Below are positions 1 to 44,721 of a stretch of DNA of 64,000 bases, one piece after another (position 1 is the first letter of the stretch; each line of letters starts with the position of its first letter). Position numbers and translations under genes: made by a program. This DNA comes from JBBIPZ01 sp037442505 [NCBI: Deltaproteobacteria bacterium] (lineage in GTDB: Bacteria > CALINM01). Where the stretch lies: contig JBBIPZ010000005.1 in NCBI GenBank assembly GCA_037442505.1, forward strand, positions 1 through 64,000, in the 5' to 3' direction. The notes beneath the pieces are model-generated. The model saw only the letters and a program-made list of their open reading frames with translations, ran no database searches and was not told the origin of the DNA.

Positions 1-644
1 AGGCGAGCAATATAGCTTTGGAAGGGAAGCAAAAGGTTGAAAGCGCCGTCGATGCAATGACACATATTGCTTCTACAGTTCGGGAGACCTCAGGGACAAT
101 TAATGAACTTGGTAAATCAAGCCAGGAGATAGGCAATATCGTCAGGATTATCAATGATATAGCAGACCAGACAAACCTTTTATCATTAAATGCTGCAATT
201 GAAGCAGCTCGCGCTGGAGAGCAAGGGCGAGGCTTTGCGGTCGTTGCAGACGAAGTGAGGAAGCTTGCTGAACGCACAGGCAAAGCAACCCGCGAGATAG
301 GCGAGATGATAAAAAGGATACAGGAGGAGACCGAGATGTCTGTTCAGAGTATGGAATCGGGTATTGTGGAGGTAGAAAGGGGTGTAATGCTTGCACAGGA
401 TGCATATGCCGCTATGGAAAGAATTGTCAGTGCCGCCAACAATAGCAATGATATGATCCAGCGGATAGCCGTAGCAGCCGAGGAGCAATCTGCGGCATCT
501 GAACAGGTTTCTGCAAATATGGAATCTATAGCTAATGTGATCCGCAACACTGAGGTTGCAACGGCTCAGATACGGTCATCTGCAGAGGACCTTGCACGCA
601 TAGGAACTGAGCTAAGGAATATGGTTGGATGGTTTAAAATTTAG
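1..644 (+). CDS. Methyl-accepting chemotaxis protein, C-terminal part (cut by window edge)
   Basis: The frame is open from the left edge (first full codon at base 3), so any sensor, membrane and HAMP parts lie outside. The roughly 213 visible residues are the cytoplasmic signalling domain of a chemoreceptor, a coiled-coil hairpin that docks CheA and CheW. The hairpin tip is intact ([39 protein letters not shown]) and the return helix carries methylation-type Glu/Ala heptads ([15 protein letters not shown]). The TTG at 18 is internal, not a start. The gene ends 15 bases before the diiron protein gene, so it may be the first member of that signalling operon. Its base composition is richer in G+C than its neighbours (about 48 percent in the first 60 bases), which suggests a different history from the AT-rich receptor at 1453. 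Confidence 0.93.
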
Positions 645-659
645 GGCAGAGGAGGTTAT

Positions 660-1451
660 ATGGTAAAGGCCATAAATGGTGTAGACATTGTAAAAGGAGA
701 AATTTTATATGATGATGGTAAACACAAATTTGTATGGCTTGGCTGGGAAGAGTATGAAGAAGAAGGTCTTGTTCAAGTTAACCAGTATTTAATTGAAAAC
801 AATGGGGTTGGAGTGTTGCTTGATCCAGGTGGAATACATGTGTTTCCAAGAGTTGTTGCTAATATATCGAGGTATATTGAGCTTGAGAGGATAAAGCATA
901 TTTTCTATAGTCATCAAGATCCCGATGTTTCATCAGGAATAGCATTATGGCTAAGTGTTACAAGTGCAAAAATTTATATATCTAAATGGTGGGTAAGGTT
1001 TATCCCCCATTATGGTATCTTTGATATGTCTACAATTGTTGCGATTGATGATAATGGAGCTAAAATTAATCTTCCATCAGGTGATATACTTCAAATAATT
1101 CCAGCCCACTTTTTGCATTCTGTTGCAAACTTTCATGTCTATGATAGCAGTTCTAAAATTTTATTTACTGGTGATCTTGGCGCTGCAATTTTTCCGAAAG
1201 GTGGTAGATATGCCTTTGTTAAAGACTTTAATTCTCACTTAAAATTGATGGAGGCTTTTCACAAAAGGTATATGGCTTCAAATAGTGTATGCAGAAAATA
1301 TGTGAATATGATTTCTAAATACCAGATTAATATGATTGCTCCTCAACATGGTGCAATATTTAATAAAAAAGAGGATGTAAAAAGTTTTTTTGACTGGTTG
1401 GCTAATTTAAAATGTGGTGTTGATATTATTGACGATATTTACAGGGGGTAG
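660..1451 (+). CDS. ODP-type oxygen-binding diiron protein (metallo-beta-lactamase fold)
   Basis: A 263-residue soluble protein with the metallo-beta-lactamase fold of flavodiiron proteins but no flavodoxin domain. Candidate iron ligands are H85, D87 and D89 (SHQDPD), H150 (PAHFLHS), D172 (FTGDLG) and H230 (APQHG). Flavodiiron reductases normally show HxExDH at the first motif. HxDPD is the form I associate with ODP, the oxygen-binding diiron protein of Treponema chemotaxis, which sits beside the receptor it controls. Here too the next gene, starting one base after the stop, is a receptor without membrane segments. A strong RBS (GAGGAGG) precedes ATG 660. The expected role is sensing O2 (or Fe/redox) and passing the state to that receptor. 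The fold is near certain. The sensor role rests on the motif and the gene pairing. A hydrolase or reductase of the same superfamily is the alternative. Confidence 0.82.
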
Positions 1452-1452
1452 T

Positions 1453-2319
1453 ATGTTTGGTTTCAATAAAAACAAGCAAAAGATAGAGAATGTGGATTTG
1501 TTACCTGTAATTAAAAAAATATCAACAGGTCTTATAAAATCAAATGTACTGGGATCAACAGTTAGCACTACTATGGGACTTATTGATAGTAGTTTTGGTA
1601 GTGTTAAGGATGAGACTACATCTGTTGCTACGGCAATGGAAGAAATTGATGCTACAATTCGAGAAATGTCTGGTAATGTAGCTTCTATTAATTCTCAGGT
1701 TCAGACGATGGTCAGAAATAATTCGGAACTTGATATAGAGCTTGTAAAAAGGGTGGAGAAAATATCGGAACAAAAAAACAGAGTATCGAAGATTGTTAAT
1801 AATATAAAAAATTTAGGTGACGCAACTGAAAACATAGGAAACATAATAGTTGCAATTTCAGATATTGCAGATCAAACCAATCTTCTTGCTCTAAATGCAG
1901 CTATTGAGGCAGCGAGAGTTGGAGAAAAAGGTAGAGGCTTTGCAGTTGTTGCTGACGAAGTAAGGAAGCTTTCACAGAGAACAGAGCAACTGACAAAGGA
2001 TATTAAAGTGATTCTTGATGGGCTTAAAGAAAAGGTTTTAGTAGCTGTAAGTGATGTAGGCAAAATATCTGAGATAATAACCACCTTTGAAAATGATATA
2101 AATACCATTAGATCCACCTTTGAAAATTCAAAAGAACTTTCAGATAAAGTTGGTGATTCAATAAACAGCCTATCATCTGCTATAGAGGAACAAAGTCAAG
2201 TTTTAGGAGATGTTACAAAGAGGGTTTCTAATATCGTTCAAACAATTGAAGAGATGCATAGAGTATTTAAAACAGTGACGAAAGTAAATGTAGAGATTAA
2301 TAAACTGATTACTTTTTAA
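1453..2319 (+). CDS. Membrane-free methyl-accepting chemotaxis protein, likely ODP partner
   Basis: A 288-residue chemoreceptor made almost only of signalling domain. There is no signal peptide, no hydrophobic segment and no HAMP, so it is cytosolic. The first ~25 residues ([20 protein letters not shown]) are followed by long helices, the CheA/CheW-binding hairpin tip ([20 protein letters not shown], then [18 protein letters not shown]) and a return helix with EEQSQ-type heptads. I place the start at ATG 1453, one base after the diiron protein stop, because AGGGGG lies just upstream inside that gene's last codons. The upstream in-frame TTG/GTG options would force a longer overlap. The tight coupling means the two proteins are made together, matching the known ODP-receptor arrangement. 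Output could go to a chemotaxis array or to another CheA-like kinase; no cheA or cheW gene is in the window. Confidence 0.88.
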
Positions 2320-2323
2320 AGTT

Positions 2324-5300
2324 ATGTCAAAAAAGGTTAAACTAATAAGCATTTTTACAGTTTTAGTTTACGTAATTTTTATAATAATATCCTACTTTTC
2401 TACGAAAAAGTTTTATCTACAGTTTCTAAATAAAGAGAAGGAGCATGTAACTTTTGTTTTTAAAGAATGCTATAGTTTTTTAGAAAGTTGGTTGAATGAT
2501 CAGAATCAAGACACATATCTATTATTAAATAGCAAGTTTTTTAAAGATGCTTACAAAAAGGCGTTAAAAAATAAAATAGATGCAAATTTTTCTGAATTTT
2601 TGTCCTTTTATAAGCAAAACAATGATATAGATGAAATACTGCTTGTAGACAATACCAAAAAAGTTCTTTATGGTCAGTTTGATGACATTCTCAAAATTGA
2701 GAAACTTGACGTACAATCTTTCACCATATATAAACAATATCAAAATGTTTATTTTGTGCTATCCTATCCTGTAATAGATGAACAGAAAAATGTAGCGGGC
2801 AGTATTTTCTTAATATACGATTTTAAAAAGAGGCTTTATCCATCAATTTCAAAATTTAGTAATAATCAGTTTCAGTTTTATTTTTTACAGTATATTAATG
2901 CAGAGCAAAGATATATAAATATTACTGAACCTGTTCCTTTTGGAACTGACGATAGAAAGCATCTTATTGAAGAGACATTAAAAAAGCATATATTCTTTAA
3001 AACAGATATCAAAACTGTGGATATAGATTCCTCAACTTACTATGTTGTCTCAAAAAATCTGGGCTATTTTGGCAGTTTAGTAATGTTTAAGGAAGTTTCT
3101 AATTTTTTTGCAATGTTCAAAGAAATAAAATATTATATCTTAGCCCTTATATTGATATTCTTATCAATTTCTCTTCTCTGGGGTTTACTGTTATATATAA
3201 TAAAAAACAAGTTTTTAAAGGAACAATTAGAAAGTGAATTCATTTATAAACTTGTCTTAAAAAGTATTGGTGATGGTGTAATAGTAACAGATAAAACAGG
3301 TAAAATTCTTATAATGAATAAAGCAAGTGAGGAACTTACAGGATGGCATGAGAGAGAAACAATAGGAAAAGATATCAATGAAGTTTTTAATATTGTGAAT
3401 GAATTTACTTATGAAAAAGTAGAAAATCCTGTAAAAATAGCACTTTTAGAGGGGAAAATAAGTGGATTAGCCAATCATACCCTATTAATAAGGAAGGATG
3501 GAAGTAAAATTTCAATTGCAGATTCAGCATCACCAATAAGAGATCAACAAGGAGAAACTTTTGGGGCTGTTCTGGTTTTTAGAGATTATACCGATGAGAG
3601 GATGTTTCAGAGCTTAATTGACATTAAAAGTTATTTAGATGAAATAAAGAATGTTCCTGAAACACACGAGATCTTAAAGGACGTGACCATTAAATTATTA
3701 GAATTTTTCCCAGAAAGTATTGTTGTTATTTATCATGGTGACAGCAAAAACGTTCTTAGTTATCAGAATATCACGATTGAAGAAGCGTTTACTTTAATTA
3801 ATGACGAAAATATACAAAACAGATACGAAGATAGATTAATCAGGGAAAGCATAGAAGTTGAAGATGGGAAATTAGTATTTTTAATTATAAATAAAGAACG
3901 CAGATTTAAAATAAAAGAAATTAATGGAGTTAAGACGGTTGCAGCTTTGATAGAAGCACTACTTTATCAGAAAAGTTATGAAAAAAAATTATTGGAGAGC
4001 AAGATTTTTATTGAATCTCTTTTAAATTCTATACCTGCTCCCGTTTTTTATAAAGATAAAAATGGCAGATATCTTGGTTTTAACAGGGCTTTTAAAAATT
4101 TTTATGGAAAGGGTGATGAGTTGATAGGTAAAACAGTTTTTGATTTTGCTCCCTATGAATATGCAAAAAAATATTATGAAATGGATGAGGAGCTTTTTCA
4201 GAAAGGGGGCGTACAGGTTTACGAATTTAAAATTAAAGATGCAAATGGTGAACTCCACGACGTGGTTTTTCATAAGTCACTATTTTTTGATGAACATGGA
4301 AATGTTGAAGGTTTGATAGGAGTGGTAATGGATGAGACGGAACTGAATGTAGTTAGAAAACATTTTAAAAATATGTTCGATAACATGAGTGAGGGGTATG
4401 CTTATCATGAAATGATTTATGATGAAGAGGGCAATCCTAAGGATTATGTCTTTTTAGAAGTTAACCAAGCTTTTGAAAAATTAACAGGTCTTAAAGCAAA
4501 CGATATTGTTGGAAAGAGTGTTTTGGAAGTGATACCTAATTTAGAGCGATTCTGGATAGAAACTTATGGAGAGATAGCAAAAAAATGCTCCTCCAAAAGA
4601 TTTGAATACTTTTCTGAATCACTTAATAAAAAATTTTTTGTAAGTACCTTTAGTTTTGAAAAAGGCAAATTTGCCACTATCTTTTTTGATATAACAGAAA
4701 AAGAAGAAATTAAGAGACAAAGGGATTTGCTATCCCATATACTTGAAAATTCCTTTAATGAAATTTATCTATTCGACAAAGTAACTTTTCAAATTATCTA
4801 TATAAATAAAGCGGCAAAAAAGAATTTGGGTTATGATGAAGAAGAACTTAGAGGTAAAATATTTTTTCATCTCTTAAATGATAGCGATATGAAGCTAAAA
4901 AAAGAAATTGAAAATGCCTTTCGTTTAGGATTAGAAAAGTTAAACTTCAAAACTACTTTTATAAGAAAGAACGGTTCACTATACGATGCCTTTGTAAGTT
5001 TGCAGTATATAAAAGAACCATTCGAAATAATTTGTGGGATTACTATCGATATATCAGAGCAGATAAGAAAAGATATAGAGTTAAAGAAATTAAAATTTGC
5101 AATTGACCAGAGCATCGATGGAATTTTAATGACAGATTCTTTAGGCTACATTACTTACGTAAATAAAGGTTTTGAGCAGATGACAGGCTATCAGACTCAT
5201 GAAGTCATAGGTAAAGATATCAAAAGTATGGTTGAAAGGGAAAGCAAACCCCTTCTTAAAGATATATCAATAAAGTTAAAAAACAAAAAAAGTTGGTTGG

Positions 5301-6589
5301 GAAATATAAATCTATTAAAAAAAGATGGGAAAATATTCAAAGCCTTACTAGCCATAACGCCAACATTTGACAAGGAAAATGAATTTGATAATATTTTAGC
5401 GATAGTCAAAGATATGACAGAATATCATAAACTTGAAGAAAGATATTTGCAGGCACAAAAAATAGAAGCTATTGGAAGACTTACAGGAGGAATAGCTCAT
5501 GATTTTAATAACATGTTGACAGGTATTATTGGTAAAGCTGAAATAGCTTTGCTTAATTATGGAGAATACAGTGATGTTGGTATGACATTTAAAGATATAA
5601 TTAATATTGCAGAGAAAGCAGCAAGCCTTATAGGGCAATTACTGACTTTTTCAAGAAAACAGATAATCAAGCCAAAGGTTCTTAATTTAAATGATGTAAT
5701 TAATGAGACTTTAAAGATGCTTAGAACCGTTTTAGGAGAAAATTTAACAATAATATTAAACTTAGAATCAGCTTTATGGAATGTATTTCTTGATGATACT
5801 CAGCTCCAGCAAGTTTTGGTGAATCTGTTAATAAACGCAAAAGATGCGATAAAAGATTTTGGCAAGATAATTATTGAGACTAAAAACCAAAAAATTGACG
5901 ATCAACTTATAGACTACAATAGTGAGTTTACAGAAAAAGAGTATGTAAAATTAATAATCAGCGATACAGGATGTGGTATGGATAAAGAGACACTTAATCA
6001 TATCTTCGAACCCTTTTTTACCACAAAACCAATTGGACAGGGAACAGGACTTGGATTAGCGACTGTCTATGGAATAGTAAAACAGAATAAAGGAGTTATT
6101 AAAGTTTATAGTGAATTGGGTATGGGAACTTCTTTTCATATTTATTTCCCACGAACTTTAGAAACTGTTAAAAATATAAAAAGTGAAAAGAAATACATAA
6201 AAAAAATTGAGCAACAAAATATTACAGCACTTGTAGTTGAAGACGATGATATAGTGAGAGATCTTTTTGTAAAAATATTAGAAACTATGGATATAAAAAA
6301 TTTAACTGCCACAAGTCCAAAAGAAGCTTTGAAACTGATTGATAGTCATAGAGATGAAAAAATCAAACTGATAATAACAGATATAGTTCTTCCCGATATG
6401 ACTGGACCTATGCTTGTTGAAAAAATAAAAGAATTGCAGTCAGATATAAAAGTTATCTACACTTCTGGCTACACTGAAAATGTTCTTAATAAAATTGATA
6501 TTTCTTTAGAGAATGCAAAGTTTTTACAAAAACCTTTTTCAATTAGTGATGTTACAGATATAATCTGGGAAACATTAGAAGAAACATGA
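2324..6589 (+). CDS. Membrane hybrid histidine kinase with five PAS domains and receiver
   Basis: A 1421-residue sensor kinase. A membrane segment near residues 8-26 and another near 266-292 enclose a ~235-residue outside domain that looks Cache-like. PAS domains follow at about 305-425, 558-675, 675-795, 800-918 and 920-1042, with a poorly defined, perhaps GAF-like, stretch at 430-555. The kinase core has the phospho-acceptor H1059 (GGIAHDFNNML), an ATPase N box (NLLINAKDAI), G1 (SDTGCGMD) and G2 (GQGTGLGLATVYG). A C-terminal receiver has its phospho-acceptor at D1353 (IITDIVLPDMTG). It starts four bases after the receptor gene and overlaps the next kinase by ATGA, so all are translationally coupled. 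The AHDFNN box places it with hybrid kinases that usually feed an Hpt or a separate regulator; the NtrC-type protein at 8938 is the obvious candidate. The ligand is unknown. Confidence 0.93.
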   Translation: MSKKVKLISIFTVLVYVIFIIISYFSTKKFYLQFLNKEKEHVTFVFKECYSFLESWLNDQNQDTYLLLNSKFFKDAYKKALKNKIDANFSEFLSFYKQNNDIDEILLVDNTKKVLYGQFDDILKIEKLDVQSFTIYKQYQNVYFVLSYPVIDEQKNVAGSIFLIYDFKKRLYPSISKFSNNQFQFYFLQYINAEQRYINITEPVPFGTDDRKHLIEETLKKHIFFKTDIKTVDIDSSTYYVVSKNLGYFGSLVMFKEVSNFFAMFKEIKYYILALILIFLSISLLWGLLLYIIKNKFLKEQLESEFIYKLVLKSIGDGVIVTDKTGKILIMNKASEELTGWHERETIGKDINEVFNIVNEFTYEKVENPVKIALLEGKISGLANHTLLIRKDGSKISIADSASPIRDQQGETFGAVLVFRDYTDERMFQSLIDIKSYLDEIKNVPETHEILKDVTIKLLEFFPESIVVIYHGDSKNVLSYQNITIEEAFTLINDENIQNRYEDRLIRESIEVEDGKLVFLIINKERRFKIKEINGVKTVAALIEALLYQKSYEKKLLESKIFIESLLNSIPAPVFYKDKNGRYLGFNRAFKNFYGKGDELIGKTVFDFAPYEYAKKYYEMDEELFQKGGVQVYEFKIKDANGELHDVVFHKSLFFDEHGNVEGLIGVVMDETELNVVRKHFKNMFDNMSEGYAYHEMIYDEEGNPKDYVFLEVNQAFEKLTGLKANDIVGKSVLEVIPNLERFWIETYGEIAKKCSSKRFEYFSESLNKKFFVSTFSFEKGKFATIFFDITEKEEIKRQRDLLSHILENSFNEIYLFDKVTFQIIYINKAAKKNLGYDEEELRGKIFFHLLNDSDMKLKKEIENAFRLGLEKLNFKTTFIRKNGSLYDAFVSLQYIKEPFEIICGITIDISEQIRKDIELKKLKFAIDQSIDGILMTDSLGYITYVNKGFEQMTGYQTHEVIGKDIKSMVERESKPLLKDISIKLKNKKSWLGNINLLKKDGKIFKALLAITPTFDKENEFDNILAIVKDMTEYHKLEERYLQAQKIEAIGRLTGGIAHDFNNMLTGIIGKAEIALLNYGEYSDVGMTFKDIINIAEKAASLIGQLLTFSRKQIIKPKVLNLNDVINETLKMLRTVLGENLTIILNLESALWNVFLDDTQLQQVLVNLLINAKDAIKDFGKIIIETKNQKIDDQLIDYNSEFTEKEYVKLIISDTGCGMDKETLNHIFEPFFTTKPIGQGTGLGLATVYGIVKQNKGVIKVYSELGMGTSFHIYFPRTLETVKNIKSEKKYIKKIEQQNITALVVEDDDIVRDLFVKILETMDIKNLTATSPKEALKLIDSHRDEKIKLIITDIVLPDMTGPMLVEKIKELQSDIKVIYTSGYTENVLNKIDISLENAKFLQKPFSISDVTDIIWETLEET

Positions 6590-8811
6590 AAAATGAAGTA
6601 AATTTAATTTTATTTTTCAAAGAAAAAAAGTTATTAATAATTTTATGGTTATTCTTTTTGATAATATTAGCCTCATATCATATCTATGAGGAATACAAAT
6701 TTGTGTATAAATTTGCATTAGGTGAAGCAAGAGAAAGTTATAATAAATACTTGCTATTTAGAAAATGGGTTGCATCAAAGGGAGGCGTTTATGTACCTAT
6801 AACAGATGATACCCCGCCTAATCCCTACCTTGATGTGCCAGAAAGGGATGTAGAGACAATAAATGGTAAAAAGTTGACACTTATGAATCCTGCATATGTA
6901 ATTAGGCAGGTATTTGAATTAGATTTCAAAGCGACAGGTAATGTATCAAAGATAACAAGTCTTAAACTTCTAAATCCCGTCAATGAATCTGATGAGTGGG
7001 AAAGAGATAAACTTAAAAAATTTAACGATAAAGAAGACGAGTTTTATGAGATAGTTAATCTGAATAATAAAAAGGTTTTAAGATACATTGGAAAACTTGT
7101 TGTAGAAAAACCTTGTCTAAAATGTCATTCAAAACAAGGTTATAAAGAAGGTGATGTAAGAGGTGGTATAAGCATTATAATCCCCTTGGACAATTATTGG
7201 AAATTATTTCTAAATAACATGTTTGGTGTAATTGGTGTAATTTTATCTATATTTATGCTTGGATTGTTATTTATTTATTTTAATTACGAATATTCAAAAG
7301 AGACTGAAGAAAGATTAAGCAATACTTTAAATAACACTTCAACTTCCCTTTTTGAGATTAAATTATTCCCCAAAATACAATTTTTATTTTTTACTAAAAA
7401 TATTAAAGACTTAACTGGTTATAACAGCGAGGAGTTAGCTGGTAATTTATATAAATTCCTTAATTTCGTTCATGAAGATGATAAAACAAAACTTTTAGAT
7501 ACCTTAAATGATATTTCTGGTAAAAGAAAGAGACTAACCTATAGGTTTTATAAAAAAGATGGAACCATAATTTGGCTTGAACATATACTAATACCCATAA
7601 AAAAAGGTGAACAGGTAATTGGTTTTGAAGGTACAATTCATGACATTTCAGAACAAGTTAGAATAGAGGATGAAAAAACTCAATTATCATTACAGTTATC
7701 CCATTCTCAAAGAATAGAAGCTTTAGGACAACTTGCAGCTGGCGTCGCTCATGATTTTAATAATGCTTTGACAGGTATAATTGGTAACGCCGAACTTTTA
7801 AAAATAAATAAAAGTAAAGACAACAGTGACTATATTTTATTGGAAAATATTATAAAAAGCGCTATGCATTCTGCAGAATTGACAAAGAAACTTCTCGTAT
7901 TTAGCAGGAAAATTAAAACAGAGAAAAAGAACTTATCATTAACCAAGCTTCTCTTAGAAATCTTAGAATTTTCAAAAAGTACAATACCTGAAAATATAGA
8001 AATAAAAAGCGGTTTATGTTCTGAGCCCCTTGTGATTTATGCTAATGAAAGTGATTTACACAATGTTTTTATAAACATCATAATTAACGCAAAAGATGCA
8101 ATGCCTTTGGGAGGAACATTAATATTAACTTCAGAAAAATTTAAGCTTGTGAACAATGAGCAAGAAAAATACTATGCAAAAGTTTCGATTACAGATACGG
8201 GTGTTGGAATGACTGAGGAGATAAAACAAAGAATTTTTGAGCCCTTTTTTACAACAAAAGATTATGGCAAGGGAACTGGATTAGGTCTTTCAACAGTATA
8301 TGGAATAATTCACGATTTGAATGGATTAGTTGATGTCGAAAGCGAACCTAATAAGGGCACTACCTTCAGGATATATATACCTTTAGCTGAAGAAGAAATA
8401 ATCGAAGAGAACTTTGAAGACAGGTTTGAAAATATAAAAGCTGCTAAAAGAATACTTATTGTAGAGGATAAAAAAGAAGTGGTAGATTATCTGGCATCCG
8501 TTCTTGAGGCACATAATTATATTGTAAAAGTTGCATACGATGGTGAAGAAGCTCTCAATATTTTTAGAGAAGAAGATGGTATAGACTTAATTATAACAGA
8601 TGTTATGATGCCAAAAATGAATGGTTATGAATTATACAAAAATATCATCCAGTTACAGCCTGACATGAAATTTATTTTCATAACAGGTTACTCAGATAAT
8701 ATTTTGGATAAAAATTTTATCGACAGTGAAGATGTAATTATATTGCACAAACCTTTTAAACCAAAAGAATTATTAAACTTAATAAATAAAGTTTGGGCAA
8801 CACATGCGTAA
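6586..8811 (+). CDS. DUF3365 (heme c-type sensor) hybrid histidine kinase
   Basis: A 741-residue kinase coupled to the previous one by an ATGA overlap. A membrane segment (about 12-33) is followed by a ~170-residue periplasmic DUF3365/Tll0287-like domain that ends in a heme-attachment motif C177-L-K-C180-H181, then the typical KEGDVRGGISI stretch. A second membrane segment lies at about 207-230. Inside are one PAS/PAC domain (245-365), a histidine kinase core with H389 (AGVAHDFNNAL), ATPase boxes (NIIINAKDAM, TDTGVGM, GKGTGLGLSTVYG) and a receiver with D672 (IITDVMMPKMNG). A periplasmic heme in a kinase suggests sensing of redox state, O2, NO or CO. Next to the diiron protein genes, this makes the cluster look like a multi-sensor oxygen/redox module. 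The heme ligand and signal are inferred. Confidence 0.93.
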   Translation: MKNEVNLILFFKEKKLLIILWLFFLIILASYHIYEEYKFVYKFALGEARESYNKYLLFRKWVASKGGVYVPITDDTPPNPYLDVPERDVETINGKKLTLMNPAYVIRQVFELDFKATGNVSKITSLKLLNPVNESDEWERDKLKKFNDKEDEFYEIVNLNNKKVLRYIGKLVVEKPCLKCHSKQGYKEGDVRGGISIIIPLDNYWKLFLNNMFGVIGVILSIFMLGLLFIYFNYEYSKETEERLSNTLNNTSTSLFEIKLFPKIQFLFFTKNIKDLTGYNSEELAGNLYKFLNFVHEDDKTKLLDTLNDISGKRKRLTYRFYKKDGTIIWLEHILIPIKKGEQVIGFEGTIHDISEQVRIEDEKTQLSLQLSHSQRIEALGQLAAGVAHDFNNALTGIIGNAELLKINKSKDNSDYILLENIIKSAMHSAELTKKLLVFSRKIKTEKKNLSLTKLLLEILEFSKSTIPENIEIKSGLCSEPLVIYANESDLHNVFINIIINAKDAMPLGGTLILTSEKFKLVNNEQEKYYAKVSITDTGVGMTEEIKQRIFEPFFTTKDYGKGTGLGLSTVYGIIHDLNGLVDVESEPNKGTTFRIYIPLAEEEIIEENFEDRFENIKAAKRILIVEDKKEVVDYLASVLEAHNYIVKVAYDGEEALNIFREEDGIDLIITDVMMPKMNGYELYKNIIQLQPDMKFIFITGYSDNILDKNFIDSEDVIILHKPFKPKELLNLINKVWATHA

Positions 8812-8890
8812 GCATGTTACAATCTTAATATCTTCTTTTTATATTACTTTTCATGTGAATAAAACATTAAAACTTAAGGATTACAAGCGG

Positions 8891-8906
8891 TGTCAACCTA
8901 TTGACA
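8891..8906. promoter_or_regulatory. Inverted repeat TGTCAA-N4-TTGACA, candidate operator
   Basis: The sequence reads TGTCAACCTATTGACA, a perfect 6-base inverted repeat with a 4-base centre. Written as TGTCA-N6-TGACA it has the 16-base geometry of CRP/FNR-family sites and resembles the CooA-type half site. The right arm is also a consensus -35 (TTGACA). Seventeen bases on, at 8924-8929, is a weak -10 (TAAAAG) just before the ATG at 8938. It lies in the only gap of the 660-10398 signalling cluster, so the regulator gene may have its own control. The function is inferred. Confidence 0.45.
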
Positions 8907-8937
8907 AATATCGTAAATTTTGTTAAAAGAAAAATAT

Positions 8938-10398
8938 ATGAAAAAAATTCTTATTGTAGACGATGATATTTATGTAAGGGATGCTATATCAAACCTTCTT
9001 ATACAAAAAGGTTACTTTGTCGATAAAGCAGTAAATGGTGTAGAGGGTTTTAATCTTATCAAAGAAAATGATTATGACACATTCCTTATTGATTTAGTAA
9101 TGCCTGAAATGGGTGGAATTGAGCTATTGAAGGAGCTAAGTAACCTTAATATATTAACTCCAGCAATAGTGATAACGGCTTATGCTTCTTTAGAGACTGC
9201 TATAGAAGCAATGAAGTTAGGTGCGATAGATTACATAACTAAACCATTTAATGTAGATGAGCTAATAGTTGTTATTGAAAAAGCTATTCAGATAAAACAG
9301 CTTAAAATTCAAAATATAAATTATAAAAAGCAACTCAAGAAAGCTCATGGTTTTGTAAATATTATTGGCAATTCACAAAAAATGCAGGAGATTTTTTCAC
9401 TTATAACTAAGGTTGCTGACAGCGATGCCACAATACTTATAACAGGTGAATCTGGCACTGGTAAGGAACTTATAGCCAAGACCATACATTATAATAGCTA
9501 TCGTTCACAGTATCCTTTTGTCCCCATTAACTGTGGTGCCATCCCTAAAGAACTTTTAGAGTCTGAGTTTTTTGGCTATGAAAAAGGAGCATTTACTGGT
9601 GCTGTTTCATCTAAGAAAGGTAGAGTTGAATTAGCTGACAAAGGCACATTGTTTCTTGATGAAATCGGGGAACTTTTACTACCGTTACAGGTAAAACTTC
9701 TTAGATTTATTCAAGAAAGAGAGTTTGAGAGAGTAGGTGGGGGAAAGACATTAAAAGTCGATGTGAGAATTATAGCTGCTACGAATAGAGATCTCGAAAA
9801 AGATGTTATTGAAGGAAAATTTCGTGAAGACCTTTTTTATAGACTTAATGTTATACCTATTAACATTCCACCTCTTAGAGAAAGAATTGAAGATATTCCG
9901 TTACTTATTGAACATTTTAGTGAAAAGTTCTGTAAAAAAAGGAAAAGACCTGCTCTTAAGTTTGGAAAAGATATCTTGCAATGTCTTATGAGTTATAATT
10001 GGCCTGGAAATATCAGAGAATTAGAAAATCTTTGTGACAGATTGTCAGTCCTTGTTACTGGCAATAAGGTTGAGTTTTCAGATCTGCCAGAAAAAATTTT
10101 GTCAAACAAGAATGTAATTCAATGTGGTAAAAGTGAAAGTATTGATGTTACTAATGCAGATTTTGTATTTCCTGAAAATGGGATCGATTTGTATAAAGTA
10201 ATAGATGATTTTGAGAGAAAGGCTATAATTGAAGCTTTAAAAAGATCTAACGGCATAAAAAGTAAGGCTGCAACTCTTTTAGGTCTAAACAGAACAACTT
10301 TGATTGAAAAGATGAAGAAAATGCGTATTCCCTTTGATATGCCTACCACTGTAACAGAATCTAATTATTCTGATACTGTCACCTCTGCGACAGCTTAA
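8938..10398 (+). CDS. NtrC-family sigma-54-dependent response regulator
   Basis: A 486-residue regulator: receiver (1-115, phospho-acceptor D52 in [12 protein letters not shown], preceded by the acidic VDDD), AAA+ sigma-54 activation domain with Walker A GESGTGKE, the sigma-54-contacting GAFTGA loop and the R-finger stretch [11 protein letters not shown], and a Fis-type helix-turn-helix ([21 protein letters not shown]) near the C-terminus. It activates -24/-12 promoters by ATP hydrolysis when phosphorylated. I prefer ATG 8938 to the in-frame TTG at 8920 because [10 protein letters not shown] is the normal receiver start; the ribosome site is weak in either case. It lies 126 bases after the heme-domain kinase and is the likely output of one or both hybrid kinases. 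I found no -24/-12 target promoter close by, so its regulon is probably elsewhere. Confidence 0.92.
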
Positions 10399-13528: not shown

Positions 13529-15193
13529 ATGAAGTTTTTATTAAGATTTTTTGCTTTGTTTTTTCTTTTTTTCTCATCTCAAACTCAACTGGTTTTTTCT
13601 GAAGATGCTATACGTGTTGGTATTTCCTCGATGATTACGCCTGTGGATACGGTTAAATATTATGATGATATTGTGAACTATATCGGCAAAAAATTGGGCA
13701 AAAATGTAGTCCTTATTCACAAAAAGAAGTATGAAGAAATGAACAGGCTTATGGAAAGAAGAGAAATTGACATTGCCTTTATTTGCACAGCTGCATATGT
13801 TCAATTGAGTGAGAATGCCCGTGTAGAAATTGTTGCTGCACCTGTAAAGGAAGAAAAAACCTTCTATAAAAGTTATATTATCGTTCACAGAGAAAGTAAC
13901 ATAAATAGTTTTGCCGATTTAAGAGATAAAACCTTTGTCTTCGTAGATCCTCTATCTAATACAGGCTATCTATACCCACTATACAGGCTGTCAAAAATGA
14001 AAGAACGCCCAGAATCATTTTTTAGCAAGACTTCATTTAGTTACAGTCACAATAAGTCTATCGAGCTTGTGGCGAAAAAGTTGGTTGATGGAGCTGCTGT
14101 AGAAAACCTTGTTTTTAATTATATGAGGGAAACAAACTCACCTTATGTCTCACAGGTAAAGATAATCGAAGAATCTATTGACTTTGCTAGCCCTCCCATT
14201 ATCATTCGTTCTGAATTACCTAAGAAGTTTAAAAACGAGATTAAAGATATAATTCTTGATATGCACAATGATAAGGAAGGTAAAGAGATACTGTCAAATA
14301 TGAAAATCAAGAGGTTTGCCTATGTGCGTAAAAAGGATTACAATGTAATTAGACAGATGATGGACATTGTAGAGAAGTCTTTTGAGAAGTTAATAAAGAC
14401 AAAAAGGAAAAACCATCTTGTTTTTGGGATACCGGATAGCAAAAATCCAAGAATTCTTTTTGAAAAGTATCAACCACTTATTGATTATCTTTCTTCTAAA
14501 ACTGGAATGGAGTTTCAACTGGTTATTAAAAATCACAAAGATCTACGAAAATCTTTAATAAACGGAGAGATTGATTCAGGCATTATTGGGTTTCTTGATT
14601 TGTATAATATAAATAGTGAACAGTTAATTGAAGTGATTGGGATACCCAAAAATGGTGAGAACAAAAGTTATTATAAAGTAGCTTTTGTTACAAAGGATAA
14701 AAAGATTAAAAAGTTAGGTGATTTGAATGGCAAACGCGTTGGTTTTGGTCCTGTTAAGTCTGATGAACTTAATTTGATACCAAGACTTATGTTAGCACAG
14801 AGCGGCATGCATTTAGCAGAATTAAAAAAATATAAACATTATGGCTATGAAGATACAATTATTAAAGCTTTGCTAAGAGATGAGATTGATGCAGGTGTCA
14901 TAAGAGATGTCCATAAGGAAAAGATCGAGAGGTTGGGTTTTAGAATAATAGAAATGTCTAAAGATGTGCATTATGGTCCTTTAGTTATGAGAAAAGATCT
15001 TGAAGAGGATTTAAAAAATAAATTTAAAAATATAGTTTTTAATTTGCCTCCAGAAGTACTTAAAGAACTTGACTATGATCTACAGGGCGGTTTTGATAAG
15101 GTTGACGTATCAATTTACAGCTCCATTGAAAAGAGTTATAAGAAAATTCCATCAGGTTGTGGTATAAGATGTCATCCCGGTTCAAAGATTTAA
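13529..15193 (+). CDS. Tandem PhnD-like periplasmic binding protein of a three-component sensor
   Basis: A 554-residue exported protein: signal peptide (about 1-24), then two consecutive PhnD-type (phosphate/phosphonate-like) binding domains, at roughly 27-270 and 300-530. Repeated landmarks are the first strand (AIRVGISSMITPVDTVKYYDD and LVFGIPDSKNPRILFEKYQ), the IDIAFICTAAYVQL/IDSGIIGFLDLYN stretch, and the LRDKTFVFVDPLSNTGYLYP/LNGKRVGFGPVKSDELNLIP loop. In transporters PhnD is a single domain with permease genes nearby. Here a histidine kinase overlaps its 3' end by 25 bases, so it is more likely a periplasmic ligand sensor for that kinase. The last residues, CGIRCHPGSKI, hold a CxxxCH that may be chance. 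The start is fixed by the signal peptide. The ligand is unknown. Confidence 0.86.
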   Translation: MKFLLRFFALFFLFFSSQTQLVFSEDAIRVGISSMITPVDTVKYYDDIVNYIGKKLGKNVVLIHKKKYEEMNRLMERREIDIAFICTAAYVQLSENARVEIVAAPVKEEKTFYKSYIIVHRESNINSFADLRDKTFVFVDPLSNTGYLYPLYRLSKMKERPESFFSKTSFSYSHNKSIELVAKKLVDGAAVENLVFNYMRETNSPYVSQVKIIEESIDFASPPIIIRSELPKKFKNEIKDIILDMHNDKEGKEILSNMKIKRFAYVRKKDYNVIRQMMDIVEKSFEKLIKTKRKNHLVFGIPDSKNPRILFEKYQPLIDYLSSKTGMEFQLVIKNHKDLRKSLINGEIDSGIIGFLDLYNINSEQLIEVIGIPKNGENKSYYKVAFVTKDKKIKKLGDLNGKRVGFGPVKSDELNLIPRLMLAQSGMHLAELKKYKHYGYEDTIIKALLRDEIDAGVIRDVHKEKIERLGFRIIEMSKDVHYGPLVMRKDLEEDLKNKFKNIVFNLPPEVLKELDYDLQGGFDKVDVSIYSSIEKSYKKIPSGCGIRCHPGSKI

Positions 15194-16647
15194 GAAAAAT
15201 TTTAAGCCTCAATATTCGAAAGAAGTTCATACTTATTAATTTATCTATATTTGTTTTTCTGTCCCTTTTTACAAGCCTTTACTTTTTCAATTTTGAGAAA
15301 AAAAATCTTTATAAAAAAATAATATCGGAAGTTAAACTTTTTGGCGAAACTCTGGTAATTCCTATTGTTAACGATTTAATTTATGAAAAACTTGGTCTCG
15401 TAGAAGAAGGTGGACTTCTTGATAACTATATCCAAGAAATTTTCACAGAAAAAAAGCTAAACTTTACCTATATAGCTGTTTTAGATGAAAATGACAGGGT
15501 CGTGTCTCACAGTGATATAGCCCAATATGGTAAAGTTTTTGATGATGAATTGATAAAAAAGGTTAATAATGAGAAAAAGACTTTAGTAAACTTTAAGGAA
15601 GATTTTTTCTTTTGTAATTATGCAGAAGTGCTCGTACCTCTTTTTATAGGAGAAAAAAAGTGGGGGACTTTAAGATTTGGTTTGGATTTTAATAATGAAC
15701 GTAGTGAGTTTTTTGTCGCTATATTTAAAATTTTTCTTATAACCATTTTGTTGGTTTTTTTAGGATATCTGCTCGTGTTATATTTGAGCAATTTATTCGT
15801 AACCCCAATAATCAACCTTGCAAACGCTATGTCAAAGACAGATATGGAAAAGCTGGATACCTATATTCCGGTTAAAGGTTCAGATGAGTTTGCCTATTTA
15901 ACAACTCAGTTTAATAATATGATAGAAAGAATAAAGATTGCTAATGATGAATTGAAAAAAAGAAACCAGATGCTACTCCAATCAGAGAAATTAGCATCCA
16001 TAGGTATTTTAGCTTCTGGTATAGCTCATGAAATAAACAACCCGTTAGGTGGTATATTTAACTGCTTACATATGCTTAATGAGAATAAGGAATTTCAGAA
16101 CTCAGAGTATCTGGAACTTATTAAGGACGGTCTTGAGAGAATAGAGAATACAGTTAAAAAACTTCTCTGGATGTCAAGAAAAGGCGAAGAACAAAAAGAG
16201 GTTGTATATTTTGAAAATTTAATAGATCATGTACTTGAGTTTGTAAGTTATAATCTTTCTAAAAAAAGGATAAAAATAATTAAAGAGGTTGAAAAGGGGT
16301 TAAAAGCCTTTGTTAGCAGGCCTGATCTTGAACAGGTGCTTTTAAATCTTATTATAAATGCTATTCAGGCGATAGATAATGAAGGAAATATCATCATTCG
16401 TTGTAAAGATGGAGAGCAGGTCATTTTCTTTGAAGTAAAGGATGATGGGATTGGAATTGGAGAAGAAAACTTAAGTAAGATTTTTGATCCCTTCTTTACA
16501 ACAAAAAAGCAAGGGGAAGGTACAGGTTTAGGGCTATGGATAACCTATGAGATAATAAAAAATATGGGTGGAGACATATGGGTTGAGAGTAAAAAAGGCT
16601 CTGGAACAAGCATATACTTTACGATAAGAAAGGAGTTAATAAACTAA
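15169..16647 (+). CDS. Membrane sensor histidine kinase (NtrB/HAMP type)
   Basis: A 492-residue kinase. Membrane segment one is at about 20-42, a ~135-residue periplasmic domain follows, then segment two (about 180-205), HAMP (205-260), the dimerisation domain with H287 (SGIAHEINNPLGG) and an ATPase domain (NLIINAIQAI, KDDGIGIG, GEGTGLGLWITYE). The start at ATG 15169 gives MSSRFKDL and overlaps the PhnD-like gene by 25 bases; the upstream in-frame TTG at 15157 is less likely. It is followed directly (stop then ATG with no gap) by its NtrC-type regulator. It probably reads the ligand state of the tandem binding protein across the membrane and phosphorylates that regulator. Confidence 0.93.
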   Translation: MSSRFKDLRKILSLNIRKKFILINLSIFVFLSLFTSLYFFNFEKKNLYKKIISEVKLFGETLVIPIVNDLIYEKLGLVEEGGLLDNYIQEIFTEKKLNFTYIAVLDENDRVVSHSDIAQYGKVFDDELIKKVNNEKKTLVNFKEDFFFCNYAEVLVPLFIGEKKWGTLRFGLDFNNERSEFFVAIFKIFLITILLVFLGYLLVLYLSNLFVTPIINLANAMSKTDMEKLDTYIPVKGSDEFAYLTTQFNNMIERIKIANDELKKRNQMLLQSEKLASIGILASGIAHEINNPLGGIFNCLHMLNENKEFQNSEYLELIKDGLERIENTVKKLLWMSRKGEEQKEVVYFENLIDHVLEFVSYNLSKKRIKIIKEVEKGLKAFVSRPDLEQVLLNLIINAIQAIDNEGNIIIRCKDGEQVIFFEVKDDGIGIGEENLSKIFDPFFTTKKQGEGTGLGLWITYEIIKNMGGDIWVESKKGSGTSIYFTIRKELIN

Positions 16648-17988
16648 ATGTCGGCAAATATATTGATAGTAGAAGATGAAAAGTTAATGAGAATAACACT
16701 TGAAGACTTTCTTAAAAATAATGGTTATGAAGTGTTTTCAACGGATAGTGGCTATGAAGGATTGGAAATATTTGAAAAAACAGAGTTAGATTGTGTGATA
16801 ACAGATGTTAAGTTGCCTGATATTGATGGTATAAACGTTCTTGAAGAGATTAGAAAAAAAGATTTTACCCTGCCAGTAATTATTATCACTGCCTATGGAA
16901 CGATAAAGATGGCAGTATCAGCAATTAAGTCTGGAGCCTTTGATTACATTACCAAGCCATTTTCTTTAGATGAGTTTTTAGTTGTGATAGAAAGAGCATT
17001 GGAGCATAAAAAAATAAAAGATGAAAATATCAGTCTAAAAAGAAAGATTGAAAACTTACTCTCACCTCATAATCTCATAGGTGAAAGCAAGCAGATTAAG
17101 GATATTTATCAAATAGCATACAGGATAGCTAATCTTGATTCTTCAGTACTTATAACAGGCGAGACTGGAACAGGAAAAGAGCTTGTGGCAAATATAATTC
17201 ATTATTCTGGAAACAGAAAGGATAAACCTTTTGTAAAAATAAATTGTGCTGCCATTCCATCAGAGCTTATTGAAAGTGAGCTTTTTGGATATGAAAAAGG
17301 TGCTTTTACAGGTGCAACATCAAGAAAGATTGGTAAATTTGAGCTTGCTAATGGCGGAACGCTCTTTCTTGATGAAATAGGCGAAATACCACTTGGTTTA
17401 CAGCCAAAACTATTGAGAGTTTTGCAGGATAAGACAATAGAAAGAATAGGTGGGCTTAAAAGTATAAAAGTTAATGTAAGAATTATTGCTGCAACTAATA
17501 AAAATCTGGAAGAAGAGGTTAAAAAAGGCAGTTTTAGAGAAGATCTTTTTTACAGATTGTCCGTTATTCCTGTGTACGTTCCCCCTCTCAGGGAAAGAAA
17601 AGAAGATATTCCATTACTTATGGAATATTTTTTAAAAAAGTACAATACAAGGTTTTTAAAAGAGGTTAGACTGTCAAAAGAGCTAATCTTAAAACTTATG
17701 GAATATGACTTTCCAGGTAATGTCCGGGAACTAGAAAATCTTATAGAACGTTTGGTTGCGCTTGCGGGAGAAAGAGAAGAACTTGGTGTAAATTTATTTG
17801 ATAAAATAACAAGCTTGTCACGCAAAACTTTCGATAGAATTTTAACATTAGATGAGTATGTATCAAAAGTTGAACTGAATTATATTAAACGTATTTTAGC
17901 ATTATGTGATGGCAACAAAACAAAGGCGGCAGAATTGCTTGGCATCAGCAGAAAGAACCTGTGGGAAAAGTTAAAACAGGAAATGTAA
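16648..17988 (+). CDS. NtrC-family sigma-54-dependent response regulator
   Basis: A 446-residue regulator with a receiver (D53 in [12 protein letters not shown], acidic VEDE), an AAA+ domain (Walker A GETGTGKE, sigma-54 loop [17 protein letters not shown]) and a Fis-type helix-turn-helix at the end ([20 protein letters not shown]). Its ATG follows the kinase stop without a base between, so both are made together. The ATG has little ribosome-site signal of its own and probably relies on coupling. The pair with the PhnD-like sensor is a complete three-component system. Downstream bases 17989-18339 hold no good GG-N10-GC promoter, so the regulated genes are not evident here. Confidence 0.93.
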
Positions 17989-19304: not shown

Positions 19305-20324
19305 ATGTTTAGAAAAAAATTTTTATTCTTTTTAACAGCATTAATAACAGTCTTTACTGTCTTTAGCAATTTGGAAGCGAAAGAGAGAAAAGTAAAAGTT
19401 ACTTTTCAAATTAATTTGAAAGCGCCAGCTGAGTCAAAGAATGTGAAACTATGGATTCCCTACCCTGTTTCAGACGAACATCAAGAAATTACAAACATAA
19501 AGATAAACGGGAACTTCAATTCACAGAATATTTACAAAGAGAGTAAATATGGCAATAACATATTATATGTAGAATGGGATGGATTGAGCACAGAAAGGAC
19601 ATTAACATATTCTTTTATTGTAAAAAGAAAAGAACACACCACAAAAGACTTTTCTAATAAAGAATTATCATTTTCAAAAAAAGAATTTAGTAAGTTCTTA
19701 GAGTTTACACCAAGTTTACCACCCACAGAAAAGGTAAAAAATTATGCCCAGAAGATAACAAAAGGCAAAAAAACAAATCTTGCAAAAGCAAGAGCAATTT
19801 ATGACTGGATAGTCGATAATATGTACAGAGATCCTAATGTAAAAGGTTGTGGACTTGGGATTGTTGATACTCTCCTTGATACAAGAGGGGGAAAATGTGG
19901 AGACATCAGTTCAGTCTTTGTAGCTTTATCAAGGGCTGCTGGCGTTCCAGCAAGAGAAATATTTGGTATCAGAATTCCTCAAGGAATGGAAGGAGATATG
20001 ACAAAGGCACAACACTGTTGGGCTGAGTTTTATCTGCCAGGCTATGGTTGGGTTGTTGTTGATCCAGCAGATGTAAGAAAGGCTATACTTGAGAAAAAAC
20101 TTACATTAGAACAGGCAAAACCTATTAGAGAATACTTCTTTGGAGCTGTAGATGAAAGCAGGATTGCTTATGGTACAGGAAGGGATATCATTTTAAACCC
20201 ACCACAAAAAGGACAACCCCTGAACTATTTTATGTATCCCCATGCAGAGGCTGATGGAAAGCTACTAAACGAAGACCTTTATGGATTTAATCTTGGTTAT
20301 AAAATAACATTTAAGGAGCTGTAA
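19305..20324 (+). CDS. Exported transglutaminase-like (papain-fold) protein
   Basis: A 339-residue protein with a signal peptide (about 1-25) and a transglutaminase-core domain in the second half. The catalytic triad can be placed at C198 (RGGKCGDISS), H237 (AQHCWAEFY) and D253 (VVVDPAD). The N-terminal half (30-135) is a beta-rich domain seen in other bacterial members (KLWIPYP, YVEWDG). In bacteria these proteins are usually peptidases or amidases rather than crosslinkers, acting in the periplasm. A very good ribosome site (CCAGGAGGT) precedes ATG 19305. It is first in a rightward group with a rhodanese, a YdjY-like protein and an Fe-S/TVP38 protein, though 131 bases separate it from the next gene, so its link to them is uncertain. 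Substrate unknown. Confidence 0.85.
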   Translation: MFRKKFLFFLTALITVFTVFSNLEAKERKVKVTFQINLKAPAESKNVKLWIPYPVSDEHQEITNIKINGNFNSQNIYKESKYGNNILYVEWDGLSTERTLTYSFIVKRKEHTTKDFSNKELSFSKKEFSKFLEFTPSLPPTEKVKNYAQKITKGKKTNLAKARAIYDWIVDNMYRDPNVKGCGLGIVDTLLDTRGGKCGDISSVFVALSRAAGVPAREIFGIRIPQGMEGDMTKAQHCWAEFYLPGYGWVVVDPADVRKAILEKKLTLEQAKPIREYFFGAVDESRIAYGTGRDIILNPPQKGQPLNYFMYPHAEADGKLLNEDLYGFNLGYKITFKEL

Positions 20325-20455
20325 AAAAACCAATACAAAACTTACAGATAATATTGACAAGTGGGAAATCACCTCTATGTCTTAGGAAGATAGTTGCTTT
20401 TATTAAGGATACCAAAGCAATTAAAAATATAAAAAAATTAAGAAGGAGGATTTAT

Positions 20456-20869
20456 ATGAAAAGGTTTTTTATATTAACAGTTCTGTATGTCTTTTCACTA
20501 ACCAATTTTGCATTTGCTGCAAATATGGTCAAGCCCGCTCTCTTCAAACAATGGCTTGAAAACAAAAAGCCACTAATAATAGTTGACATTCAGACAGCTG
20601 AAGAATTTTCCAAACATCACTTTGAAGGCTCTATTGAAACCAATGCATTTCCTGCTAAAACAGGCGAAGAAAAAGCAAAAATAGACAAAGCTTATAACAT
20701 AATTAAGAATTCAAGTGATGATGTTGTAATAATCTGTCCAAGAGGTAAAGGTGGGGCTATGAATACTTACGAATATCTAAAATCAAAAGGAGTCGATGAA
20801 AAAAGACTGTATATTCTTGAAGGTGGCATTCAAGGCTGGCCTTACAAAGAGGCACTGAAAGGAAAATAA
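20456..20869 (+). CDS. Exported single-domain rhodanese
   Basis: A 137-residue protein with a signal peptide (MKRFFILTVLYVFSLTNFAFA) and one rhodanese domain. The active-site cysteine is C94 in ICPRGKGG, a loop slightly different from the usual CxxGxRS. The domain start (LENKKPLIIVDIQTAEEFSKHHFEG) and end (LEGGIQGWP) are typical. It would transfer or trap sulfane sulfur (or selenium) in the periplasm. I place the start at ATG 20456, after AAGGAGGA, because this gives a clean signal peptide. The longer open frame from 20354 lacks a ribosome site. It is followed by a YdjY-like gene, and a rhodanese (YnjE) also accompanies ydjXYZ in E. coli, which supports a shared pathway. Confidence 0.88.
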   Translation: MKRFFILTVLYVFSLTNFAFAANMVKPALFKQWLENKKPLIIVDIQTAEEFSKHHFEGSIETNAFPAKTGEEKAKIDKAYNIIKNSSDDVVIICPRGKGGAMNTYEYLKSKGVDEKRLYILEGGIQGWPYKEALKGK

Positions 20870-21040
20870 AGATCAATCAGTTAAGCTTTAAGAATACATC
20901 TATCCAAAATGGGGGCAGATAACTTCAAATTGTTGTTATATGCAAAAAACTGAATTTGGTAAAGCTGCTTATAGTAAAAAAATTATCAAAAGACAAAGGG
21001 CCTAAAAGCTTGTTAAAATAAAGTTTAATGGAGGGTTAGT

Positions 21041-21697: not shown

Positions 21698-21703
21698 AAA
21701 TTT

Positions 21704-31345: not shown

Positions 31346-31387
31346 TAGGGGCATAAGATTTTTAAAGATGCCCCTATCTTTATTTTT
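31346..31387 (+). terminator. Rho-independent terminator after ppdK
   Basis: TAGGGGCAT (31346-31354) and ATGCCCCTA (31368-31376) form a perfect 9-base stem with a 13-base loop, followed by TCTTTATTTTT. It closes the glyQ-glyS-ppdK unit. It overlaps the last codons of the convergent rpoN gene; in the leftward direction the stem exists but no T-run follows it. Confidence 0.88.
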
Positions 31388-40075: not shown

Positions 40076-40084
40076 AGCGCGTGC

Positions 40085-44705: not shown

Positions 44706-44721
44706 TGGCATATATATTGCG
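44706..44721 (+). promoter_or_regulatory. Sigma-54 (-24/-12) promoter of the liv/oxidoreductase operon
   Basis: TGGCA (44706-44710) and TTGC (44717-44720) are spaced as in the sigma-54 consensus TGGCAC-N5-TTGC, with exactly ten bases between the invariant GG and GC. Transcription should start near 44732, about 30 bases before ATG 44762. The rpoN gene is in the same window. Confidence 0.87.

What the first reader, a model, noticed from the sequence alone, without database searches (positions are those of the whole stretch)
1..10398. Multi-sensor oxygen/redox signalling cluster joining chemotaxis receptors and hybrid kinases
Receptor, diiron sensor, receptor, five-PAS hybrid kinase, heme-domain hybrid kinase and NtrC-type regulator lie in one direction. 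Overlaps or gaps of a few bases link the genes from 660 to 8811, and a 126-base gap precedes the regulator. Two different metal sensors (diiron and c-type heme) feed one cluster. I know of no described system with this composition. It may couple movement and sigma-54 transcription to the same oxygen or redox cue.
Basis: inference. Interest (0 to 1): 0.8.

Follow-up and report, generated by a model that had tools for sequence, protein, structure and literature searches.

The report
Oxygen chemoreceptor pair beside hybrid kinases
A known oxygen-sensing protein and its partner movement receptor sit in one tight row with two sensor kinases, one of which may detect nitric oxide rather than oxygen; the pair is widespread, but this particular row was seen in no other genome examined.

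Summary
The row of genes is real. 660-1451 encodes an ODP diiron protein and 1453-2319 a membrane-free chemoreceptor. 2324-6589 is a five-PAS hybrid kinase, 6586-8811 a hybrid kinase with a Tll0287/DUF3365 c-type-heme sensor, and 8938-10398 an NtrC-type regulator. A chemoreceptor fragment (..644) precedes them. Gaps are -4 to 15 bases up to 8811, then 126.

The core is not new. ODP plus a soluble receptor is a published oxygen chemotaxis module, and ODP operons with other signalling genes are reported too. A chemoreceptor flanks ODP in 33 of 42 loci opened with long flanks, and follows it in 29 of 30 Thermotogota loci. The six-gene order is not conserved: none of the 42 had a hybrid kinase or sigma-54 regulator in the same-strand run. 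The nearest ODPs have c-di-GMP enzymes, other receptors or che genes there. In one other genome a related heme kinase sits beside a kinase and an NtrC-type regulator with no ODP in the locus.

Best reading: a portable ODP-receptor cassette joined to a separate two-component module. The heme domain resembles the class that a 2026 preprint finds to bind NO, not O2, so "one oxygen cue" is doubtful. New variant of a known kind; moderate interest.

The parts
3..644 (+). C-terminal 213 codons of a chemoreceptor (MCP1), cut by the window edge; sensor part not visible
   Evidence: PF00015 E=2.5e-50; GC 47.2%, GC3 0.427, the highest of 49 ORFs
660..1451 (+). ODP, oxygen-binding diiron protein (metallo-beta-lactamase fold), 263 aa
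   Evidence: PF19583 E=3.5e-78; phmmer to 6qrq 9e-109 and 6qnm 3e-94; H85, D87, D89, H150, D172 and H230 identical in 76 of 76 aligned ODPs, the window's included
1453..2319 (+). membrane-free, sensorless chemoreceptor (MCP2), 288 aa from ATG 1453 (ORF open from GTG 1414)
   Evidence: PF00015 E=3.5e-36; no transmembrane stretch by hydropathy; same tip-to-EEQS spacing (98) as MCP1; 72-74% identical to the receptor after ODP in four other genomes
2324..6589 (+). HK1: two transmembrane helices, weak CHASE4-like outer region (21.9 bits, under its cut-off), five PAS, HisKA, HATPase, REC
   Evidence: phosphoacceptor motif from residue 1055 and REC Asp motif from 1349
6586..8811 (+). HK2: outer Tll0287-like (sCache_heme) domain with CLKCH at residues 177-181, PAS, HisKA, HATPase, REC; ATGA overlap with HK1
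   Evidence: PF11845 E=8.1e-17; TM 16-34 and 212-230, CxxCH at 177; no other Cys in residues 1-235
8812..8937 (+). 126-base AT-rich gap; TTGACA at 8901 is a possible -35, not shown to work
   Evidence: promoter scan at chance level
8938..10398 (+). NtrC-type response regulator (REC, sigma-54 AAA+ with GAFTGA, Fis-type HTH)
   Evidence: PF00072, PF00158 E=8.8e-74, PF02954; GAFTGA at residue 217

Best explanation
The cluster joins two modules. Module A (MCP1?, ODP, MCP2) is an oxygen/iron chemotaxis module: cytoplasmic ODP binds O2 at its diiron site and acts on MCP2, which has no sensor of its own; MCP2 joins by its conserved hairpin tip an array with CheA/CheW encoded elsewhere and alters CheA output. 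Module B (HK1, HK2, NtrC-type regulator) is a two-component set: HK2 reads a periplasmic ligand on its c-type heme, most likely NO or redox state, HK1 reads an unknown outer signal plus PAS inputs, and their phosphate reaches the NtrC-type regulator, which activates sigma-54 promoters. Tight spacing makes MCP1 to HK2 one likely transcript, so both modules are made together; the regulator may have its own promoter. Shown here: gene order, domains, conserved residues, the heme motif, and that A and B-like sets occur apart in other genomes. Inferred: the ODP-MCP2 action (by homology to T. denticola), the NO ligand, the phosphotransfer partners, and co-transcription. A joint physiological purpose (low-O2 nitrate/nitrite respiration) is a guess.
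For: ODP and MCP families and structures. A chemoreceptor flanks ODP in 33 of 42 long-flank loci and follows it in 29 of 30 Thermotogota loci. In the 12 genomes with the closest ODPs (71-80%), a receptor follows ODP in 11, but what comes next varies: an HD-GYP protein, with or without a further receptor, in 4; a GGDEF protein in 7 (one checked by Pfam: PhnD-type, PAS, GAF, GGDEF, EAL); the twelfth has CheA-CheW-MCP-MCP-ODP-CheR-CheD-CheB. CheA- and/or CheW-like genes also lie in the ODP loci of G408, G613, G588, G381 and G489. Module B apart: a Tll0287-PAS-HisKA-HATPase-REC kinase (34%) beside a kinase and a REC/sigma-54 regulator in G588, and beside a kinase and a REC protein in G613, with no ODP in the 7.5 and 18 kb read. 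NO reading; in G295 a Tll0287 kinase and OmpR-type regulator end an ODP run next to a cytochrome c552-family gene.
Against: No expression data. No CheA or CheW was found in the window by tblastn with the G646 proteins (one weak hit, to the HATPase of HK2) and the genome is not held, so the array partners are unseen. PMC7666581 saw no clear position for ODP in the T. [quoted passage not shown] NO binding by this domain class rests on one signalling-type protein in one preprint. No Hpt domain matched in the six proteins, so the route from two hybrid kinases to the regulator is unclear. 9 of 42 long-flank loci have no flanking receptor, so ODP probably also works without one. The shared row could mean real cross-talk that this two-module reading understates.
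Confidence: 0.6

Rival explanations
1. One reading: one dedicated system in which the receptors and both kinases answer the same oxygen or redox cue and couple movement to sigma-54 transcription.
For: Continuous tight run 3-8811 with an ATGA overlap. In G295, one of the three held genomes nearest by housekeeping genes, a different ODP (47%) also shares a long run with a PAS kinase, a hemerythrin and a Tll0287 kinase.
Against: 0 of 42 long-flank ODP loci share the order or have any hybrid kinase or sigma-54 gene in the run. A signalling-type heme domain of this class is reported as NO- not O2-binding. Like kinase sets occur without ODP.
Confidence: 0.17
2. Two unrelated modules that merely became neighbours; no joint function beyond shared read-through.
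For: The ODP tree places the window's ODP in a clade with the 12 G408-group proteins (99/98), far from the ODPs of G241 and G295, which are nearest by housekeeping genes, so the cassette looks imported or sorted independently. The three nearest held genomes lack the cluster. GC drops from 33% (ODP, MCP2) to 29% (HK1, HK2).
Against: 1- and 4-base junctions with matched strand across the module boundary; GC3 of ODP, MCP2, HK1 and HK2 is alike, 0.23-0.24, so no recent junction shows there.
Confidence: 0.2
3. The chemoreceptor MCP2, under ODP control, signals directly to HK1 or its REC instead of, or besides, CheA.
For: MCP2 and HK1 are separated by 4 bases; no cheA/cheW found in the 64 kb.
Against: MCP2 keeps the hairpin tip motif and is 72-74% identical to receptors whose loci hold CheB (checked in G408) and, in G408, G613 and G588, CheW- or CheA-like pieces; no precedent seen in the paper searches made.
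Confidence: 0.03

Closest known systems
ODP-coupled cytoplasmic chemoreceptor of Treponema denticola (TDE2498/TDE2496) and Thermotoga maritima ODP
   Same: ODP matches the solved ODPs (6qrq 9e-109, 6qnm 3e-94; species of each entry recalled); a receptor without membrane or sensor part sits beside ODP, as described for TDE2496 (PMC7666581 passages)
   Different: here a second receptor precedes it and two hybrid kinases plus an NtrC-type regulator follow in the row
ODP operons with other signal-transduction genes, as summarised in the TREND paper (PMC7319448 section 8, read)
   Same: ODP encoded in one operon with signalling genes beyond the receptor is already reported as a group
   Different: the summary names no heme hybrid kinase or sigma-54 regulator; its supplement and the original PNAS paper were not read here
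sCache_heme (DUF3365/Tll0287) sensor kinases (PMC12889525)
   Same: HK2 has PF11845, a CxxCH between two membrane helices, fusion to PAS-HisKA-HATPase-REC, and no other cysteine in its first 235 residues
   Different: ligand untested here; encoded beside an ODP-receptor pair
Hybrid kinase plus NtrC-type (sigma-54) two-component sets, as in G588 locus L171
   Same: Tll0287-PAS-HisKA-HATPase-REC kinase next to a second kinase and a REC/sigma-54 regulator
   Different: only 34% identity for HK2; gene order heme kinase, kinase, regulator; the second kinase is a short one, not a five-PAS hybrid; no ODP or receptor in the 7.5 kb contig

Membership tests
ODP (oxygen-binding diiron protein) | PF19583 above cut-off and similarity to solved ODPs | tested here: met
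   262.4 bits against a cut-off of 27.2; 6qrq 9e-109, 6qnm 3e-94
ODP (oxygen-binding diiron protein) | metal-ligand type residues H-x-D-x-D, H, D, H (assignment as ligands recalled from flavodiiron proteins) | tested here: met
   H85, D87, D89, H150, D172, H230 in 76 of 76 aligned ODPs, the window's included
ODP (oxygen-binding diiron protein) | reversible O2 binding at the diiron site | not testable with these tools
   needs purified protein
ODP-coupled cytoplasmic chemoreceptor | MCP signalling domain, no membrane or sensor part, adjacent to ODP | tested here: met
   no TM stretch by hydropathy and 1-base gap; adjacency in 33 of 42 and 29 of 30 other loci
ODP-coupled cytoplasmic chemoreceptor | modulates CheA | not testable with these tools
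   no CheA found in the window; genome not held
sCache_heme (DUF3365/Tll0287) sensor | PF11845 with CxxCH in an outer region between two membrane helices | tested here: met
   62.4 bits, cut-off 24.1; TM 16-34, 212-230; CxxCH 177
sCache_heme (DUF3365/Tll0287) sensor | signalling type: no axial cysteine, NO binding without stable O2 complex | tested here: inconclusive
   no Cys besides 177 and 180 in residues 1-235 fits; gas binding not testable
NtrC-type sigma-54 response regulator | REC, AAA+ with GAFTGA, Fis-type HTH | tested here: met
   an RpoN-like ORF lies at 31380-32783, named from its sequence, no family call made
   0 of 42 long-flank loci; absent from the 3 nearest held genomes

The most novel reading that the evidence does not exclude
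A dual-gas unit: a portable O2-sensing ODP-receptor cassette and an NO-sensing heme kinase set are made from one transcript so that flagellar taxis and sigma-54 transcription are tuned together to O2 and NO. The heme kinase sharing a run with a second, distant ODP in G295, beside a cytochrome c552-family gene, would be a parallel case.
Probability: 0.2. Interest if true: 0.6.

Novelty: new variant of a known kind. Interest (0 to 1): 0.33.

Why it matters
It shows the ODP-receptor pair as a portable oxygen cassette found in front of different outputs in different bacteria (che genes, c-di-GMP enzymes, here hybrid kinases). If the heme kinase reads NO, the locus would be a testable case of O2 and NO sensing bound into one transcript. 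It does not by itself reveal a new kind of system.

Tried and rejected
Rejected: that the six-gene order is a conserved system. Rejected: that closeness of genes alone is notable. Weakened: that both metal sensors read oxygen.

Led nowhere: the fold of the HK1 outer region, predicted without an alignment, had mean pLDDT 37 and was not searched. HK1 residues 1-480 matched PAS parts (some with a little of the stretch before them), plus one weak 24% match over residues 10-433 in G382, in 25 genomes. Whole HK2 matched in 137 of 293 genomes, but the listed matches start at residue 203 or later, so they are kinase-part matches. The HK2 sensor found no solved structure by phmmer. A sigma-54 promoter pattern gave 34 matches in the window, all with two mismatches, against 24.5 expected (1 of 100 shuffles had as many), and none in the 126-base gap. 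No ODP relative was confirmed in viral contigs. The genome-contig scan gave two loci: a Thermotogaceae one with a receptor after ODP and an archaeal one with no receptor beside it. Plasmid hits (12 records) were under 60% identical; of two opened, one has an annotated chemotaxis protein just before ODP and one a hypothetical protein. Two phyla close by PPDK (35 and 10 genomes) had no ODP match.

Limits. The window's genome is not held. 'Nearest' rests on PPDK identity of 84-85% in G241, G294 and G295 and on shared order glyQ-glyS-ppdK-rpoN-lptB-lptA-lptC: all seven in G241 and G294, six seen in G295 (gene names given from sequence, not from a family call). Only 3 genomes of that phylum are held. 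The 42 loci come from 41 genomes: 21 of the 24 genomes with a match (G003, G248 and G442 were not opened with long flanks), and 20 of the other 52 with a match, chosen by me mostly from the top of its list. One of the 42 (G002) is also in the Thermotogota sample but not among the 30. Several loci are cut by contig ends, and domains were called by blastp to seeds from the window, L001 and L052, so weak domains can be missed. The 30 Thermotogota loci are the best-scoring, with about 1.5 kb on each side, so they say nothing on distant kinases. In one search the run tally lost L130 and L133 to small spurious ORFs; one search repeats it with those ignored and a 300-base limit. In some searches five loci (L141, L144, L145, L146, L115) gave no ODP because of competing ORFs; re-read them. 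L003, the same place as L001, was left out of the alignment and tree.

The horizontal-transfer reading is not settled: other window genes (19305, 20354, 21704) also have 63-74% matches in G408-group loci, so loss in the three nearest genomes is possible.
Full report
What is there. Six reading frames on the + strand match the finding. The first is only the last 213 codons of a chemoreceptor. The second (660-1451) is an ODP: PF19583 at 262 bits, and its closest solved relatives are the oxygen-binding diiron proteins 6qrq and 6qnm. The residues H85, D87, D89, H150, D172 and H230 are identical in all 76 ODPs aligned, the window's included; that these are the iron ligands is recalled from flavodiiron proteins. 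The third is a chemoreceptor with no membrane stretch, whose likely start is ATG 1453. The fourth has two membrane helices, five PAS stretches and a hybrid kinase end. The fifth has a Tll0287-like domain with CLKCH between two membrane helices, then PAS, kinase and REC. The sixth, from ATG 8938, is an NtrC-type regulator with GAFTGA. Gaps are 15, 1, 4, -4 and 126 bases. Such spacing is common in this window: 31 of 43 same-strand neighbours lie within 20 bases. No CheA or CheW was found in the window; the only tblastn hit was weak and fell on the HATPase of HK2.

What is known. [quoted passage not shown] denticola, genetically coupled to the receptor TDE2496, which lacks membrane and sensing modules and can modulate CheA; [quoted passage not shown] PMC6978683 (passages seen) says that ODP binds iron and oxygen and contacts its receptors. 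The original PNAS paper is not held; what I know of it beyond these passages is recall. PMC7319448 (passages, section 8 read in full) says that work found ODPs in operons with receptors in two orders, in operons with other signalling genes, and fused to signalling domains. So the core, and even the idea of wider signalling operons, is in print. A search for ODP with hybrid histidine kinase and chemoreceptor found no paper in the held library, nor did one for ODP with chemotaxis, cyclic di-GMP and metallo-beta-lactamase. A looser search listed 15 of 16 papers, of which I opened only PMC7319448. Of PMC10653840, PMC9665402 and PMC12654446 I saw passages only; they add nothing on operons.

Is the order conserved? 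Among 61 Thermotogota genomes 44 have an ODP match at E<=1e-60. In the 30 best-scoring loci a receptor follows ODP in 29. Housekeeping genes place the window nearest to G241, G294 and G295 (PPDK 84-85%, shared gene order). Two of these three have an ODP match, at 47-48% identity, in a different row: roadblock protein, ODP, HD-GYP protein, PAS kinase and, in G295, further REC proteins, a hemerythrin, a Tll0287 kinase, an OmpR-type regulator and a cytochrome c552-family gene. The G241 contig is only 5 kb. The closest ODPs (71-80%) are in 12 genomes of another phylum whose PPDK is 56-66% identical. A tree of 76 ODPs puts the window's protein in a clade with those 12 (99/98) and apart from G241 and G295; its exact place inside is unsure (92/62). 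In those 12, a receptor follows ODP in 11, 72-74% identical to MCP2 in four and 58-60% in seven. Those four continue with an HD-GYP protein, three of them with a further receptor before it and a kinase after it. The seven continue with a GGDEF protein. The twelfth holds CheA, CheW, two receptors, ODP, CheR, CheD and CheB. Over all 42 long-flank loci: receptor flanking 33, any histidine kinase in the run 8 (in three of them, L112, L127 and L137, it is or includes CheA), c-di-GMP-type enzyme 17, Tll0287 domain 1, hybrid kinase 0, sigma-54 regulator 0.

The other half. HK2-like kinases of the same domain order occur in G588 and G613 at 34% identity, next to a second kinase and, in G588, a REC/sigma-54 regulator cut by the contig end. 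No ODP is in the 7.5 and 18 kb read there. So sets like each half occur apart, and the window joins them. HK1 has no close relative of its sensor in the 25 genomes searched; one 24% match covers residues 10-433.

What the heme kinase senses. PMC12889525, a February 2026 preprint (abstract, the whole Results section and other passages seen), renames this domain sCache_heme. It reports that a signalling-type member lacking the axial cysteine binds NO tightly and forms no stable O2 complex, while a stand-alone member looks redox-related. HK2 has no cysteine but the two of its CxxCH in residues 1-235. By this analogy HK2 is more likely an NO than an O2 sensor. That is one protein from one preprint, so I hold it at moderate confidence.

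How it works, with marks. Shown: gene order, domains, conserved residues, separate occurrence of similar halves. Inferred from known families: ODP with O2 acts on MCP2, and MCP2 acts on CheA made elsewhere; HK2 heme occupancy changes its kinase; the regulator drives sigma-54 promoters. Unknown: which kinase phosphorylates the regulator (no Hpt domain matched in the six proteins), the targets, and whether the two halves talk.

Verdict. It is a new arrangement of known modules, seen so far in this window only.

Noticed in passing
window 3-644: The receptor fragment is the codon-usage outlier of the window (GC 47%, GC3 0.427 against mean 0.277, sd 0.035), although MCP2 with the same domain has GC3 0.23; possibly a recent import.
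   Followed up: partly
window 13529-17988: A protein with two phosphonate-binding-type stretches ending in SGCGIRCHPGSKI (a CX3CH string) overlaps a kinase (15157-16647) that is followed at once by an NtrC-type regulator (16648-17988): a second sensor-kinase-NtrC set.
   Followed up: no
L052 1-11287: In G295 a distant ODP lineage shares a long run with roadblock, HD-GYP, PAS kinase, ParA-type, hemerythrin and Tll0287-kinase genes next to a cytochrome c552-family gene.
   Followed up: partly
window 19305-23404; L182, L184: Neighbouring genes 19305, 20354 and 21704 have 63-74% matches in G408-group genomes, another possible shared or transferred block.
   Followed up: no
window 36684-41873: REC-PAS-kinase-REC hybrid, a short kinase and a KaiC-like protein (name from sequence only) lie in one direction.
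   Followed up: no
window 44706-44721: TGGCATATATATTGCG, a two-mismatch sigma-54-like site shortly before the binding-protein gene at 44762 and after a PAS/sigma-54 regulator (42941-44599); the pattern count in the window is 34 against 24.5 expected, reached in 1 of 100 shuffles.
   Followed up: no
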